NCBI GenBank assembly: GCA_025526995.1
Contig: JAHLKG010000002.1
Location: 1,674,001 to 1,738,000 of the forward strand
Direction: 5' to 3'
Length of the DNA stretch: 64,000 bases
DNA from: Powellomyces hirtus
Taxonomy: Eukaryota; Chytridiomycota; Chytridiomycetes; Spizellomycetales; Powellomycetaceae
In this document: one piece after another, positions 38,182 to 45,701 of the stretch
Layout: each line of letters starts with the position of its first letter
How positions within the stretch are numbered: the stretch's first letter is position 1
Translations under genes and position numbers: made by a program
The notes under the pieces: model-generated
The model's input: only the letters and a program-made list of their open reading frames with translations
Database searches by the model: none
Told to the model about the DNA's origin: nothing

Positions 38182-39044
38182 CTATTCTCTCCGTAGATTA
38201 TCCAATCGAGCTTGTAGTGCGGCATCGTCTGCCATCATCGCACTGTCAGCCGCAGATTCCTTGGACGCGGCTGGTCCCATTCTTCCTTTTTGCGCGTCCG
38301 GTAGCTGCAAAGGATGGGTTTTCAGCACACGTCTTCTAGTGGGATAAATACTGCGAGAGGGGACCGTACCTGTTGGTCTAAGCTTATACCAATCTCGTCA
38401 AGCACCTGGTTGACAATCTGATCACTCTCCTCCTCATCGTTCTCATCCTCCATCACATCATCGATTGCATCGTTCATCATCTCCTCCTTCATGTCCATCG
38501 TCTCGCTCTCGCGTTCAAAGTCCATCATAATCTTCTGTATCGCCGGCAGATTTATTTGGTTGTTCATTGACCTCATTGCTTTGGTGACCCCGCGGATGGC
38601 TTCACCCATTTGCTGATTTGATCGAAGCGTCTGCGGAAAAACAGTAATCCATCGGTAAATATGAAGCGGCCTGCCACTCGCGCCAGTACAAGACTTGTCG
38701 CACCTGTATTCTCAGACCAACTGCCTGCAGTTGTGTGCGCATTTGATAGAATTTCTGAATGTACCGACGTGTTCGTACAAGATCCTTTGCCATGATCTTA
38801 CAAGCGTTCTGGAAGTTGGCAACGCTTTAGCTGTCACGTCGAGCTCAAACCTCAAGAGTTCAGCGACGCGTACCATTTGGTTGGCTTTGGCCGCCTTCTT
38901 GATATCCACAATCAGCTTCTTTTCCTGCTGCTCGAGCTTTCCACGTTCCCTGTCAAGATCACGCTGTGCTCGAGTGAGTGCCCGCTGGTGCTGTCGTAAC
39001 AGCTCAGCGGGAGTTTTCCGCGCCCCAAAGATCATTTCCATCAT
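38182..39044 (-). CDS. VPS2: ESCRT-III subunit VPS2/CHMP2
   Basis: Four exons (39044-38874, 38808-38704, 38630-38370, 38304-38182) give 660 nt, 219 residues. Start MMEMIFGARKTPAELLRQHQ, then RALTRAQRDLDRERGKLEQQ, IMAKDLVRTRRYIQKFYQMR, AIRGVTKAMRSMNNQINLPA, MMDFERESETMDMKEEMMND and the C-terminal MIT-interacting helix ARLDNLRRE, which matches the MIM1 motif recognised by Vps4. The basic N-terminal helix and acidic C-terminal half are as in human CHMP2A. It works with Vps24 in membrane scission at endosomes. Confidence 0.96.
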
Positions 39045-39360
39045 CGTTGCAAAGTGTTCGACAGGGTAAGGAAGCGAGTGTATCGGTTGTTGACTCTGCG
39101 CAGGGAATAGTGTGATATTGTGTTCCGAGGAAAAGACAACGCTCTCCAGTTGCAATGGGTTTTTATATACTGAGGGTTGATATGGCAAAAGTCTTGGCAG
39201 AACCAGAGTGTTGATATCTTGAGAGGTCGAACTGGGCGTGTGCTGTCACTTCGCACGTGACCTGGCTAACGTAATCGAAGTGAGCATTCCTTCCCTTCCA
39301 TCTGTTTTTTCACACTTCCGTTCGGACAGCAGCGCACGCGTTGTTTTCGCTTTCATAATC

Positions 39361-42300
39361 ATGCTCCGATTCCTCCTCCTGCTGCTCTCGTTGCCTCTCC
39401 TGGCTTTCCACCTATACGCTGACCCACCAACCCAATTGTGTCGCTGGCTCACAACAACCGAACTCGACACTGTCTTTCTGCGAACACAGGATTGGGTTCT
39501 CTTTGATCGTTGCAACCGCAAACTCCGGTACATCGATAAGCAACGCCCGCCATCTGCCGCTTCACCCGACGCGGTTGCCCACTCAACAGCCACCGCACAT
39601 TCAGACACAACACAAAGTCAGACTACTTTTCCGCCACCAGAGAAATCAGTAGATTGCATTCCGTGTTTCACTCCGTCGGATTCATCATCCCCGCCCACTC
39701 AGGAAGAGCATCAATTCTCCGACAGCATGAGTGCCCACGCGCGCAAGATCGAGATTGTCGGCACTGCAGCCGTGTCCACCGACGAAGAATGGGAGGCACA
39801 GATTAGTAGACCATGCTTGACCGTCGTGGATGTGTATGCACGATGGGCCGGACCCTGCGAACCTATGCAGAACATCTTCAAACGACTGAAACTCGATTAC
39901 GGTGAAGCCGTCAACTTTGTGATGGCGCAAACTGATGGAATAGAAGCGTTGGCCACGCTACGCAACAAGTCTTGTCCGACGTTCCTCTTCTTCTTCAAAG
40001 GCACCCTAGTGAAAATGATCAAAGGAGCCAACGCTCCCCAGATCGAGAAAACTATCAAAGAACAGCTGGATCTGGAAAAGAAGGGATTGCCACATGTCGC
40101 TCTTCGTCTGGACAATCTCTCACTGGCAGTCTCTACGAGCGGAGACAGCGCTGCTGCATCGCAAGACGACTCATCATCGCCCATGACACCTTACACTCCC
40201 ATGTCGGCAACATCTGAACGTACGTTGGCTATCATCAAGCCCGACGCGATGGCGCCAGCGGTCCTCGCTCAGATCCTTGACATCATCCGCCGAAACCGCT
40301 TCGACATTGTGCAGAGGAAAAAAGTCTGGCTCACTCCCGCCCAGGTTGAGGAGCTGTACAAGGAGCATGAGAAGGCGGCGTACTTCCAAGGTGTTTTGAC
40401 CCACATGTCGACGGCGCCTGTTCTGGCGTTGATTTTGAATAAAGATAATGCGGTGCAAGATTGGAGGAAGGTTATGGGTCCAGCAAACTCTCGCGCTGCG
40501 CGTGACGCGGCACCCTCTAGGTATGTCACTGGGTGTCATTGTCCTCAGTGTTATCAAGGAACTGACAAAAGAACTTGACAATGTGTGAAGCATCCGGGCC
40601 CTAGTCGGCACTGACAACCGGTTGAACGCCGTATACGGATCCGAAACGCTCGAAGCAGCGGGCCACGAAATCGAACTTCTCTTCGGGGCCAACGCATCCG
40701 TTCTCGAACTTCCCCTTCCCGCCATCGTCGACCAACCATCGTCCGCCCTCATCCAGCCGCCGGAAAAGACACTGGCCATCATCAAACCCGACATGATCGA
40801 CCCCGAAAAAGTCGATGCGATCGTCGAGCGTATCGTGTGCCGTGGGTACCAGGTTCTCAAACGAGAGAGCGTGCATCTTTCGCAGGACGAGGCTGCGGAA
40901 CTGTATTCGCATCAGAAGGAGGCGCCGTACTTTGCGGATGCGGTCGCATTCATGTCCAGGTGGGGTGTCGGAAAACGAGTAATGGTTGCACGTATCCTGG
41001 TTTAACGCATTTTGAATTTAGTGGTCCTGTCGTTGCATTGGTCTTGAAGGGAAGTGATGTGGTGAATGGATGGAGAGAAATGATAGGCCCCACAGACCCT
41101 GAAACAGCCAAATCACAGTTCCCCATGAGGTACTGCATCACATTGCTCCAAATTATGCGACTTCTTTTTTCCAGGCCTGTCTCTAATCTCTTGGAAAACT
41201 GAAATAGTATCCGCGCCCGATTCGGCACCGACGCCGTGCGCAACGCCGTGCATGGTTCCGACGGCATCGCCAATGCGCACCGGGAAATTCGGCAGCTCTT
41301 CCCATCGCTCCTCATGCGTTCCGAGTCCGGCGTCTACGGGACCCGGCCCAGCACCGCCTCCATGCACGACACACCCACCACCCATCACACCGCTTCAGCC
41401 GACGACAACATCTTGACTGAACGCACCTGCGCGCTCATCAAACCGGACGCGTTTGCCAAAGGCCATAAAGATGAGATTGTGCAGAAGATTAAGGCTGCGG
41501 GCTTCAAGATCGTGGCTGAGAAGGAGGTGGAGCTGAAGAGGGAGCAAGCTCTGGAGTTTTATAAGGAACATAACGGACAAGGATTCTTTGAGGAACTGGT
41601 CAACTGGATGAGCACGTGAGTTTTGCGAGTGTGCGCAAGATTCGAGCCGAGACATGCTGATGTTGAACTTGGCCGCTGCATCAAAATCATCTAGACCCGA
41701 CCTTCCGATCTACGCGATGGTTCTCGAGCGAGACACGGCCATCACGGCGTGGCGAGAGCTAGCTGGGCCCACGAATTCAAACAAGGCTCGCGAAATCGCA
41801 CCCAACAGGTACTGTATAAACAAACGACAGACAACTTCTTAGACTCCCCTCTCCCCCGCATGTTACTCACAGACTATCTTAATGCCTTTTCAGCATCCGC
41901 GCTTTATTCGGCACCGACGGCTCCAAAAACGCTGTGCACGGGTCCGACTCTCCCCAATCGGCCGAACGCGAGATCAAAATCATCTTTGGCGACAGCGTCA
42001 GCCCATACCCATCCGCTGCTAAGCCCACGGCATCCACATCCACTCAACGCACCCTGGCGCTCATTAAACCCGACGCGTACGGTGCGGGCAAAAAAGACGA
42101 GATCGTGAAACGTATCAAAGACGATGGGTTCCGGATTGTCGAACAGGCCGAAACAATGTGGTCGAAGGAGAAAGCGGCAGAGTTCTATAGAGAACATGTT
42201 GGGAAAGGGTTTTATGATGAGTTGGTGCGGTGGATGAGCAGGTGGGTGGGGTGCAGCGATCTATATGCGCGTTTGAGTTCTTTGACGATAGGGGTTCTTG

Positions 42301-44640
42301 ACATGATTGGTTTGTCAGCGCACCGATTTATGCCATGGTTTTGGAGAAGGACGATGGTATTAAGGGATGGCGGGATCTGGCGGGGCCGACCAACTCGGAG
42401 AAAGCCCGCGAGTCCGCGCCAAACAGGTGAGATTTCGGTCACCTACCATTTTTCCTCGCGATCTACGTAGCAGGCCATTCATGCTCATTCTTTTTGCGTG
42501 ACATAGCATCCGCGCTTTGTTTGGCACCGACGGCAGCAGAAATGCCGTACATGGGTCCGACTCACCCGCATCCGCCTCACGGGAAATCAGCCTTGTCTTC
42601 CCCTCGACCGACTCCTCTGCCCGCATCCCGGCCCCGGCCGCCAAATCTCCCGAACGCACTCTCGCACTCATCAAACCGGACGCGACAGCGCAACGCGACG
42701 CCATTATTTCCCGGATCAAATCCGCCGGATTCACGATCGTCAAACAAGAAGAAATCACACTGACGCCTGAGAAAGCCGGTGAATTCTACCGTGAACATGC
42801 CAGCAGACCGTTCTACGAGACGCTGGTGACGTGGATGAGCAGTGAAAGTATTCTGGCATTGGTCTTGGAAAAAGTAGATGCAGTCGTCGAGTGGAGAGAG
42901 CTGGCAGGTCCCACTGATTCAAACAAGGCGCGAACCTCAGTTCCTAACAGCATTCGGGCACTGTACGGCACGGACGGGAGCAAGAACGCTGTACATGGTT
43001 CCGATTCCCTCCCATCCGCAGAGCGTGAAATCCGACTCATCTTCCCCGACCTCGCCGGCTCACATCACGCTGCTCAACACGCGTCAGCGACGTCTTCCGG
43101 CGTGCCCATCCAACGCACCCTGGCGCTCATCAAGCCCGACGTGTACCCAGCGAAAAAGCCCGACATTGTAAAACGCATCCAAGCGGACGGGTTCACGATT
43201 GTTACTGAGAAAGAAGTCAACTTTTCGAGCGAGGTCGCCAAAATGTTTTACAAAGAACATGAAGGGAAGGGCTTCTATGACGATCTGGTGGAATGGATGT
43301 CCAGCGCACCCATCTATGCGCTCGTGCTCGAGAAAGAAGGGGCAATCACCGGGTGGCGTGAACTGGCTGGTCCAACGAATTCGGAGAAAGCCAGAGAAAG
43401 CGCCCCGCAGAGCATTCGGGCCGTATACGGCACCGACGGGAGCAAGAATGCCGTGCACGGGTCCGACTCGGAACCTTCTGCTGAACGCGAAATTAGACTA
43501 GTGTTTGGCGACGCTGTATCTCCATTTGCCACCGCCCAGGGAACCCGCGCTGCTGCTCCCTCACACCAGTCCAAACCCACACCCGCCTCAACAACCGCCA
43601 CAACACCGGGCCCGGCAGCTGTCACAAACGACGACCCACGCCACCTGGAACGTACACTAGCGCTCATCAAACCCGACGCGTACGGCACGCACAAGGCGGA
43701 AATAATACGTCGCGTACAAGAAGCCGGTTTCGTGATCATCAAGGAATCCGAACTCCGCTTTACACCCGAAATGGCTGCGGCGTTCTATCAGGAACATAAC
43801 GGGAAGCCGTTTTATGATACCCTCGTCGAGTGGATGAGCAGTAAGCCGATTTATGCAATGGTGTTGGAGGCGGAAGACGCGGTGAAGAAATGGAGGGGAT
43901 TGGCGGGGCCGACAAATTCGGAGAAGGCGAGAGAAACGGATCCAAATAGGTAAATATCTCACATAAAAATGAAGCTGCTATCTTTGCTGAGGGTGCGTTA
44001 TAGCGACTAACTGAGTTGCTTCGCTCCTTGTAGTATCCGAGCATTGTTCGGAACAGATGGGTCTCAGAACGCAGTCCATGGGTCCGACTCGGTCTCATCC
44101 GCGACGCGCGAAATCGGAATCGTCTTTGGTGATTCCCTTCCCGCGCCACCACCCACCACCACCCAAGTAGCTCCCGCAACCACAACAACTACAACAAGCG
44201 CCACACCCAAACCGCCGACCACCGCCAAACCAGCCTCGTCCTCCCCGTCCCGCGCCGCATCCAGCTCAAACGTTGCAGCCGCCAGAAAGTCCACTTCCAA
44301 CCTGACGAGCTCCAGCCGGGCTACCTCTCAAAAATCCGTCGCGCCAACAGCCACCACAACGGGTAGCAAACCGGCTTCCCGCGTGTCAAGCTCAACGGCC
44401 TTGGCGTCTGCCAAATCGGCATCGTCGGTCAACAAACCAGGATCTCGTGTAGCGTCCAAAAATGATTTGAGCTCATCAAAAGTCCGCTCCCCAAGTACCG
44501 GAATGGGATTACGGGCGAGCACGAATAAATTGGCGGCCGATAAAAATGCCGGGGCGACCGGCGTAGGCACCGCGGAACCGGTGGGACCCACCGCGGCGAT
44601 CATGGACGACCCGACCAACATCGTGGCGAAGGAAGAGTAG
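39361..44640 (+). CDS. thioredoxin domain plus seven NDPK domains, NME8-like (axonemal dynein intermediate chain class)
   Basis: Nine exons. From the ATG at 39727 (MSAHARKIEIVG, the usual NME8/NME9 start) the coding length is 4,299 nt, 1,432 residues; the frame continues to an ATG at 39361, adding 122 residues with a hydrophobic start. Introns: 40521-40590, 40960-41021, 41130-41207, 41616-41694, 41809-41893, 42242-42318, 42427-42506, 43950-44033. The thioredoxin domain has WAGPC (39844-39858) where WCGPC is usual. Seven NDPK domains begin with TLAIIKPDA, TLAIIKPDM, TCALIKPDA, TLALIKPDA, TLALIKPDA, TLALIKPDV and TLALIKPDA. Each ends with SIRALFGTDGSKNAVHGSDS or a variant; domain 1 has Tyr for the catalytic His (NAVYGSE), the rest keep His. 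A Ser/Ala/Thr-rich tail of about 170 residues follows. Animal NME8 has three NDPK domains. Confidence 0.92.
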
Positions 44641-44860: not shown

Positions 44861-45467
44861 TCATGGCGCCCAATTCCGGCTGTTGTGCGCTACTGTGAAT
44901 AGATACGGTGAGCAGTCAAGAACATCAATCCGGAGTTCTTTGCTTTGGTACTCGCGGAGCAATGTCAATGCTGCTCGTAACGTTGGACCGGAGCTGCTCA
45001 CAAGATTGGAGATGTTAGTTTCCATAAACACAGCCAAAGATGCCATACTGTGTATCCTTCCTTACTCGTATGGCGTGCGTATCAGCCCTTCCTGTCCGCT
45101 CTGATCAAATTTCAACAAATCGACGTGGTGTCCCGCCCCCACGATCCCGAATGCTTCACGCAGCGCATGGTTGATAGCGTTCCGAAAATGGAGTTCGTCG
45201 AATGTATGGTCGTCGGCCGTAACTCTAAGGTACACACAAAAAACAACGGTCGGTCCGCGCACAAGAAACAGCAGATTTGCAGCTCTTTGTCTCTTACAGA
45301 CGCAGTCGGAGGTACTGAAAAGGGAACCCCGAGACGGTGAATTTTGTTCCTGATGGTGGTTTGCTGGCAGTTGGTGTGGCGTGTAGCGGTTTTTTAGACG
45401 GGTGGGTTGCGTCGAGAGAAGGCTGGGATGGTGAGCGATCTCGCTTGGCTGGTGAAGCAGCAGACAT
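44861..45467 (-). CDS. ribonuclease P/MRP subunit, RPP14-like
   Basis: Three exons (45467-45298, 45224-45066, 44993-44861) give 462 nt, 153 residues. After a basic, Ser/Pro-rich leader (MSAASPAKRDRSPSQPS), the core reads YLRLRLVTADDHTFDELHFR, NAINHALREAFGIVGAGHHV and DLLKFDQSGQEGLIRTPYDS, then LRAALTLLREYQSKELRIDV and LDCSPYLFTVAHNSRNW. The order of blocks and the final S-P-(F/Y)-L...NSR match human RPP14, of the Pop5/Rpp14 fold that binds precursor-tRNA processing RNA. POP5 is the alternative but has a different C-terminus. It converges on the NDPK gene. Confidence 0.7.
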
Positions 45468-45701
45468 TGTTGCCTAAAGTAGCGGCGGTGCAATCAATAC
45501 CTCGTCGTATGAGAATGCCGTCGGTGAAGTTGGAGGTGGAAAGGGCACTGTTACTAAGCCTATGCGAAATACCGTCAATGCGCAGCACCCGTCAGACGCG
45601 GATGTGATTTCTGACGCGTGGAAACTTCTTCCCTTTTCCATCGCGACAACTCGAACTTCACGATGGAACAAGAATAAGATCACCCACCCCCACCCGAACT
45701 G

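What the first reader, a model, noticed from the sequence alone, without database searches (positions are those of the whole stretch)
39361..44640. A thioredoxin protein with seven NDPK domains
I count seven NDPK starts ([LC]A[IL]IKPD) and seven matching SIRA...NAV(H/Y)GS ends in one exon-joined frame whose length is a multiple of three. Known NME8/IC1-type dynein intermediate chains have one thioredoxin and three (animal) NDPK domains. A heptad is a large expansion, probably linked to the outer dynein arm or another axonemal site. Whether other chytrids share it is unknown to me.
Basis: partly seen in the sequence, partly recalled or inferred. Interest (0 to 1): 0.75.

Follow-up and report, generated by a model that had tools for sequence, protein, structure and literature searches.

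The report
Chytrid flagellar protein with seven kinases
A chytrid fungus gene encodes one thioredoxin-like domain followed by seven nucleotide-kinase domains; it is the fungal version of an animal cilium-motor protein that usually has three, and related fungi carry anything from three to about nine, which suggests a tunable energy-supply or scaffold part of the swimming tail.

Summary
Window 39361-44640 (+) is one gene (nine coding exons, 1554 aa), identical to the public Powellomyces hirtus protein P0001, with one thioredoxin (TRX) and seven NDK domains. D3-D7 share 60-68% DNA identity and only 35-46% at third codon positions, so this is no assembly artefact. All eight introns sit at two homologous NDK sites in one phase.

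It belongs with animal NME8/NME9 (sea urchin IC1). The heptad is not unique: named fungal relatives carry 3-8 NDKs, a metagenomic one 9. Mainly the third domain type multiplied. Its copies keep eight catalytic residues in 82 of 87 cases, against 7 of 28 second and 1 of 28 first domains. Powellomyces has six intact domains; D1 lost the catalytic histidine. The TRX redox pair is lost (AGPC). TRX occurs in 46 of 51 proteins of my flagellated-fungal set and 0 of 18 from non-flagellated fungi, with search bias stated.

Best reading: a TRX-anchored outer-dynein-arm subunit carrying an expanded, catalytically competent NDK array. Location and activity are inferred. New variant of a known kind.

The parts
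39361..44640 (+). Whole coding region, 9 coding exons, 1554 aa, TRX + 7 NDK
   Evidence: Splice model identical to public protein P0001
39361..39726 (+). N-terminal extension: hydrophobic start (MLRFLLLLLSLPLLAF), linker with CIPC; an in-frame conserved Met (MSAHARK) follows at 39727
   Evidence: Ten fungal proteins picked by eye have such an extension, C.PC in 6 of 10; codon test inconclusive
39772..40059 (+). Thioredoxin domain; active-site motif WAGPC at 39844-39858 (first Cys of CxxC is Ala)
   Evidence: Pfam PF00085 residues 16-111 counted from Met 39727; motif across relatives
40219..40696 (+). NDK D1, catalytic His replaced by Tyr, T94 by Ala (pseudo-domain); contains intron 40521-40590
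40766..41313 (+). NDK D2, eight catalytic residues present; introns 40960-41021 and 41130-41207
41422..41999 (+). NDK D3, catalytic residues present; introns 41616-41694 and 41809-41893
42048..42612 (+). NDK D4 (third-domain type), catalytic residues present; introns 42242-42318 and 42427-42506
42655..43056 (+). NDK D5 (third-domain type), catalytic residues present; no intron
   Evidence: fold matches solved NDKs
43114..43518 (+). NDK D6 (third-domain type), catalytic residues present; no intron
43651..44139 (+). NDK D7 (third-domain type), catalytic residues present; intron 43950-44033
44140..44640 (+). C-terminal low-complexity basic tail (S, A, T, P, K, R make up 74% of the 165 residues after the last NDK match) and stop codon

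Best explanation
The gene encodes the fungal member of the NME8/NME9 (thioredoxin-NDK dynein subunit) family. Its thioredoxin domain works as a docking module and no longer as a redox enzyme; by kinship with human TXNDC6/NME9 it would sit on an outer-dynein-arm heavy-chain tail (inferred). D1 and D2 are a diverging pair, often non-catalytic in relatives (D2 is intact here). D3-D7 are tandem copies of an ancestral third NDK that kept its catalytic residues, so the protein would hold several working NDP-kinase sites beside the motors and exchange phosphate between NTPs and ADP locally, with array length setting capacity. Shown: architecture, family kinship, expansion of the third domain type, catalytic-residue conservation, thioredoxin present in the flagellated-fungal set and absent from the non-flagellated one. 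Inferred: axonemal location, enzyme activity, the capacity role.
For: One TRX and seven NDKs in one gene. The best PDB match by E-value is TXNDC6 from the human axoneme (8j07), E 6.2e-55, query 5-122 on chain 3-121 (query TRX to D3, 649 aa). Fungal d1, d2 and d3+ domains separate in the tree: 29 of 29 d1, 27 of 29 d2, 91 of 93 d3+ in their own groups. Catalytic residues intact in 82 of 87 d3+ copies, 7 of 28 d2, 1 of 28 d1; animals d1 3 of 7, d2 0 of 7, d3 0 of 7. TRX in 46 of 51 flagellated-fungal/metagenomic relatives, 0 of 18 non-flagellated fungal ones. Nme9 binds Dnai2 and is axonemal in Xenopus (PMC7785291, passages); human TXND6 on the outer-arm tail as LC3 homologue (PMC10886578, passages). 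Axonemal adenylate kinases with 1, 2 or 4 catalytic domains are a precedent for tethered nucleotide enzymes (PMC11779644 section 8).
Against: No expression, localisation or activity data were available. Human NME8 and NME9 are reported to lack detectable NDPK activity (PMC13256974, passages), although PMC8754002 and others place NME8 in the outer arm. NDPKs are classically active as oligomers (PMC13256974), and the models give no confident arrangement of the tandem domains (pTM 0.38 and 0.42). Orthologous NDK domains persist without TRX in non-flagellated fungi, so the array also has some role outside the flagellum. Ten fungal proteins have a hydrophobic N-terminal extension, odd for an axonemal protein. 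The Arg58 position, not required in my count, is Ala in D2 and Gln in D3.
Confidence: 0.5

Rival explanations
1. Structural array: the NDK domains serve as protein-binding or spacing modules on the dynein arm, as NME7 and NME5 may do elsewhere in the axoneme, and catalysis is incidental.
For: Animal NME8/9 domains have decayed catalytic sites and are reported inactive (PMC13256974); D1 is degenerate and D2 often so, yet both are retained; the linker between the first two domains is short and nearly constant (15-23 residues in 16 of the 22 proteins listed).
Against: 82 of 87 third-type copies keep all eight catalytic residues, which a pure scaffold would not need.
Confidence: 0.25
2. The array's main role is not axonemal: a cytoplasmic, microtubule- or membrane-linked NDK polyprotein for which TRX is one lineage's targeting tag.
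For: Coemansia, Basidiobolus, Mycoemilia and Tieghemiomyces keep d1-type domains, and Basidiobolus, Mucor, Rhizopus and Apophysomyces d3-type domains, with no TRX found and no flagellum; hydrophobic N-terminal extension.
Against: TRX-bearing forms were seen only in the flagellated-fungal set and in animals among the listed hits; the TRX domain is closest in the PDB to an axonemal protein.
Confidence: 0.12
3. Copy number is near-neutral: repeat expansion by unequal crossing-over, with no functional meaning for seven as against four or eight.
For: Copy number varies 3-8 between named genera, with recent local duplications (Zopfochytrium, Clydaea, Geranomyces, Chytriomyces).
Against: Powellomyces d3-d7 group with the same-numbered Thoreauomyces domains: direct sisters for d6 and d7 and for d3, d5, d6 and d7, d4 only loosely. 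So the block was kept over a genus split, and the catalytic residues are retained in nearly all third-type copies.
Confidence: 0.12
4. Assembly or gene-model artefact multiplied the domains.
For: Tandem repeats are a common source of such errors.
Against: D3-D7 copies differ at 32-40% of DNA positions; one intronless 1443-base exon (42507-43949) holds D5 and D6 whole plus parts of D4 and D7; Thoreauomyces has 7, and two Rhizophlyctis records both show 8, one with its first domain cut.
Confidence: 0.01

Closest known systems
NME8/TXNDC3 (DNAI8), sea urchin IC1, Ciona TNDK-IC
   Same: N-terminal thioredoxin followed by tandem NDK domains; linked to outer-arm dynein in animals (literature)
   Different: Three NDKs, not seven; catalytic residues mostly decayed in the seven animal proteins compared; TRX site WCGPC (162) or WSGPC (9) in the animal/other set, against no first Cys in 42 of 42 readable fungal sites, 39 of them [WF]AGxC
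NME9/TXNDC6 (8j07), LC3 homologue on the human outer arm
   Same: Best sequence match in the PDB by E-value, thioredoxin aligned end to end
   Different: One NDK; keeps both Cys of the TRX site (PMC10886578)
Chlamydomonas LC3/LC5 thioredoxin light chains
   Same: Thioredoxin-like outer-arm subunit (literature)
   Different: No NDK domain (PMC8754002)
NME7 (FAP67)
   Same: Tandem axonemal NDKs; among the best PDB matches to the NDKs
   Different: No TRX, two NDKs; the two-domain span superposes on the model only at about 20 A rmsd
Axonemal adenylate kinases AK7/AK8/AK9
   Same: Nucleotide-recycling domains in varying number tethered in the axoneme (PMC11779644)
   Different: Unrelated enzyme; on radial spokes, not the dynein arm

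Membership tests
NME8/NME9 (thioredoxin-NDK dynein subunit) | N-terminal thioredoxin domain | tested here: met
   Pfam PF00085, 39 bits; TXNDC6 best PDB hit
NME8/NME9 (thioredoxin-NDK dynein subunit) | TRX followed by NDK domain(s) in one chain | tested here: met
   Seven NDK stretches, one gene
NME8 in the narrow animal sense | Exactly three NDK domains | tested here: not met
   Seven here; 3-8 in fungal relatives and one in NME9, so the count is not a stable family trait
NME8/NME9 (thioredoxin-NDK dynein subunit) | Domain-by-domain orthology of NDK1-3 with animal NDK1-3 | tested here: inconclusive
   Animal domains form their own groups with weak deep support; animal d1 falls near fungal d2 (0.31) but not
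NME8/NME9 (thioredoxin-NDK dynein subunit) | Component of the outer dynein arm | not testable with these tools
   No proteomics or localisation available
Redox-active thioredoxin | CxxC active site | tested here: not met
   WAGPC
Nucleoside diphosphate kinase with intact active site | K12, Y52, T94, R105, N115, H118, S120, E129 (human NME1 numbering, recalled) | tested here: met
   All eight in D2-D7, not in D1
Nucleoside diphosphate kinase with intact active site | Measured enzyme activity | not testable with these tools
   none
NME7 | DM10 domain plus two NDKs | tested here: not met
   No DM10 listed in the Pfam scan; seven NDKs

The most novel reading that the evidence does not exclude
In flagellated fungi the thioredoxin-NDK dynein subunit became a motor-tethered enzyme battery of variable length: an anchor, a diverging first pair, and one to about seven working third-type NDK copies that recycle nucleotides at each outer dynein arm. 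In fungi that lost the flagellum the thioredoxin anchor was lost while NDK domains were kept for another use.
Probability: 0.15. Interest if true: 0.75.

Novelty: new variant of a known kind. Interest (0 to 1): 0.5.

Why it matters
Whether NDK domains on axonemal dynein are enzymes or inert scaffolds is open; in the animal proteins compared they look decayed. Chytrids give a natural series with one to six intact NDK domains on the same subunit, some in genera grown in the laboratory (recalled), so the question becomes testable by comparing or trimming copies. It also bears on two published statements: that NME8 is likely a choanoflagellate/metazoan innovation (PMC2978717) does not hold, because TRX-NDK genes are widespread in flagellated fungi; that the TRX-NDK chain is opisthokont-specific (PMC4415241) fits the TRX-bearing named hits I saw, though the lists were capped.

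Tried and rejected
Assembly duplication: rejected by DNA divergence of the repeats. Separate genes: no evidence for it; exon 8 (42507-43949) carries the end of D4, all of D5 and D6 and most of D7, and the public annotation is one protein. The Pfam Amidohydro_2 hit is below its cut-off (26.2 against 26.4 bits) and taken as no domain.

Intramolecular NDK dimer or hexamer: tried with two AlphaFold2 models. Single domains are confident, the arrangement is not (pTM 0.38 and 0.42). VIA-align listed almost only single-domain NDK chains, and Foldseek pairs with NME7-type chains superpose only at about 20 A. The hexamer idea is neither supported nor excluded by the models, and relatives with seven or more third-type or total copies weaken it.

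Domain-wise orthology with animal NDK1-3: not resolved. An IQ-TREE run timed out; FastTree replaced it. The codon-usage test of the N-terminal extension was inconclusive: its frame scores above shuffles and the other frames but below the rest of the gene, and the unannotated open stretch just upstream scores higher. A survey of TRX-NDK genes outside opisthokonts was not feasible, since each listing shows at most 120 hits.

Selections and rows dropped. The 51 are the fungal or fungus-like hits that I picked; they include five unnamed metagenomic proteins (P0026, P0030, P0031, P0043, P0224) and several records of one species; P0035 (unnamed, no TRX) was left out. Of these, 28 (mostly one per species) were used for catalytic counts, with domains under 115 model positions dropped; Chytridium P0121 (N-terminally truncated) was left out and Basidiobolus counted apart (d1 1 of 1, d2 0 of 1, d3+ 2 of 3 intact). 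The five of 51 without TRX are P0011, P0015, P0121 and P0125, which start in or close to the first detected NDK, and P0226, whose seven NDKs are all third-type. Bias: the queries contained TRX and so favour TRX-bearing hits; 17 of the 18 non-flagellated proteins come, whose query region held NDKs only; three of the 18 (P0024, P0239, P0272) are labelled partial.

Papers: PMC2978717, PMC2777172, PMC4415241, PMC13256974, PMC10886578, PMC8754002, PMC7785291, PMC13358043: passages found by term search only. PMC11779644: passages plus its section 8. I found no description of the chytrid arrays in the searches (open-licence PMC papers only; listings read). The 2026 fungal flagellum paper (PMC13358043) has no 'NME', 'thioredoxin', 'TXNDC' or 'nucleoside diphosphate' in its main text; its supplements were not read.
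Full report
What is there. The genome is that of the chytrid Powellomyces hirtus: the joined protein, read from Met 39727, matches the public P. hirtus protein P0001 at 100% over the 1432-aa query, and the eight-intron model from ATG 39361 gives exactly that 1554-aa protein. The window is contig C2:1674001-1738000 of a 29.3-Mb, 60-contig assembly. Pfam finds one thioredoxin and seven NDK domains. The unspliced genome scan puts seven NDK starts in this gene; the other NDK matches are at C21, C14, C4 and C5. In the same kind of scan the next best thioredoxin match has E 5.4e-6 against 2.9e-85, so no second close thioredoxin was found.

Repeats and introns. D3-D7 are 62-71% identical in protein, 60-68% in DNA and 35-46% at third codon positions; D1 and D2 are 38-46% identical in protein to the rest and to each other. 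All eight introns are phase 2 and sit at two homologous positions of the domain: five before SIRA (D1, D2, D3, D4, D7) and three after the WMS/FMS motif (D2, D3, D4); D5 and D6 have none. The introns were therefore most likely duplicated with the domains and later lost from D5 and D6 (inference).

Relatives. Searches (195 hits, 120 listed; 632 hits, 120 listed; 109 hits) show the gene across Chytridiomycota, in Gonapodya, in Sorochytrium and in animals. My domain HMM counts 3 NDKs in Globomyces, Boothiomyces, Cladochytrium, Gonapodya and Sorochytrium; 4 in Batrachochytrium, Entophlyctis and Rhizoclosmatium; 5 in Zopfochytrium and Nowakowskiella; 6 in Spizellomyces, Geranomyces, Polychytrium, Blyttiomyces, Phlyctochytrium planicorne, Chytriomyces and Clydaea; 7 in Powellomyces and Thoreauomyces; 8 in Borealophlyctis, Rhizophlyctis, Phlyctochytrium bullatum and Irineochytrium. 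Some records are truncated (Gaertneriomyces, Fimicolochytrium, Phlyctochytrium arcticum, Chytridium). Quaeritorhiza P0226 has 7 NDKs without detected TRX, a metagenomic protein has TRX plus 9 (P0224), and another has 17 NDKs without TRX (P0225). The seven animal proteins compared have 3 each; one partial snail record (Bulinus, P0051) shows six stretches. All rest on public gene models, and single counts may be off.

Which domain grew. In a tree of 172 domains (FastTree), 29 of 29 fungal d1, 27 of 29 d2 and 91 of 93 d3+ domains fall in their own groups (support 0.94, 0.94 and 0.72). The misfits are d2 of Basidiobolus and of metagenomic P0031, and d3 of Cladochytrium and Clydaea. Powellomyces d3-d7 group with the same-numbered Thoreauomyces domains: direct sisters for d6 and d7 here and for d3, d5, d6 and d7 in the second tree of 106 domains (support 1.00, 0.27, 0.91, 0.92); d4 only loosely. 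Zopfochytrium, Clydaea, Geranomyces and Chytriomyces show recent local duplications. Animal domains are not resolved against fungal ones.

Catalysis. Using eight recalled catalytic positions (human NME1 numbering), Powellomyces D2-D7 are intact; D1 lost His118 and Thr94. Over 28 flagellated-fungal proteins 82 of 87 d3+ domains are intact, 7 of 28 d2 and 1 of 28 d1; in seven animal proteins d1 3 of 7, d2 0 of 7, d3 0 of 7, although all 21 animal domains keep His118. The five d3+ exceptions are one each in Gaertneriomyces, Clydaea and Entophlyctis (an alignment gap) and two in Nowakowskiella. The Arg58 position is mostly Lys or Arg in third-type copies but Ala in Powellomyces D2 and Gln in D3; I did not require it.

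Thioredoxin. Of 46 fungal TRX domains, 42 have a readable site: 39 are [WF]AGxC, 2 WSGPC, 1 WVGPC, none with the first Cys; the animal/other set has WCGPC (162) or WSGPC (9). The redox pair is thus lost in the fungi. TRX is found in 46 of 51 proteins of the flagellated-fungal and metagenomic set and in 0 of 18 from non-flagellated fungi. In one search the d1 domains of two Coemansia, Basidiobolus, Mycoemilia and Tieghemiomyces group with chytrid d1 (support 0.93), and Basidiobolus d3-d5 and the single Mucor, Rhizopus and Apophysomyces domain lie in the fungal d3 group; their d2 domains are unresolved, and Coemansia d3 sits on a long branch beside chytrid d2. So TRX is the part most tied to the flagellum, but this is a correlation over few losses, with the search bias given under Tried and rejected.

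Mechanism. Published passages treat human TXND6/NME9 as the LC3 homologue on an outer-arm tail (PMC10886578), find Xenopus Nme9 in axonemes and with Dnai2 (PMC7785291), and list NME8 as the orthologue of sea urchin outer-arm IC1 (PMC8754002). The P. hirtus genome has several dynein heavy-chain tail loci (14 DHC_N1 pieces at about six places; cytoplasmic dyneins not separated). I therefore infer that TRX docks the protein on the outer arm and that the third-type copies, kept catalytically intact, exchange phosphate among nucleotides beside the motors, as adenylate kinases with one, two or four catalytic domains are thought to do at radial spokes (PMC11779644 section 8). Against this, human NME8 and NME9 are reported inactive (PMC13256974), and no activity or location was measured in fungi.

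N-terminus. The annotated start precedes a hydrophobic stretch and a C.PC motif. Ten fungal proteins, picked by eye, have an extension before the MSAHARK-like Met with a hydrophobic stretch (best 19-residue Kyte-Doolittle mean 1.47-2.77); C.PC is in 6 of 10 against at most 3 of 10 in 20,000 shuffles, a test made after the motif had been seen, and the extensions are otherwise barely alignable; 22 records start directly at such a Met. Of two Geranomyces variabilis records (P0005, P0009) only one annotates the extension. It may be a second, membrane-directed isoform or a non-coding open stretch; codon usage did not decide.

Verdict. A real, correctly counted seven-NDK gene: a new variant of the NME8/NME9 family, one point in a fungal series with changing copy number. 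Interest 0.5.

Noticed in passing
window 39361-39726; P0002, P0009, P0014, P0012, P0050 and others: Hydrophobic N-terminal extension, often with a C.PC motif, upstream of a conserved internal Met (MSAHARK-like) in ten fungal TRX-NDK proteins; possible second, membrane-directed isoform.
   Followed up: partly
P0225 (metagenomic, 3149 aa): Protein with 17 tandem NDK domains and no TRX found; source organism unknown.
   Followed up: no
many of P0227-P0312: Proteins of about 1300-1700 aa joining mostly two or three NDK domains with adenylate-kinase domains, in protists (Cafeteria, Aphanomyces, Symbiodinium) and metagenomes; looks like a nucleotide-recycling polyprotein.
   Followed up: no
P0239, P0247 (Coemansia), P0310 (Mycoemilia), P0273 (Tieghemiomyces), P0024 (Basidiobolus): Non-flagellated fungi keep d1-type NDK domains without TRX; low-complexity tails in the ones checked (P0239, P0310, P0024); function there unknown. 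Six further Coemansia records have NDKs and no TRX but were not put in the tree.
   Followed up: partly
   Followed up: no
P0051 (Bulinus truncatus, partial): One snail record shows six NDK stretches, possibly two fused or duplicated copies of the animal three-NDK array.
   Followed up: no
window 38322-39245, minus strand: Snf7-family (ESCRT-III) gene divergent from the TRX-NDK gene (Pfam Snf7: one exon above its cut-off, one just below).
   Followed up: no
window 45062-45493, minus strand: Pop8-like RNase P/MRP subunit fragment downstream (Pfam).
   Followed up: no
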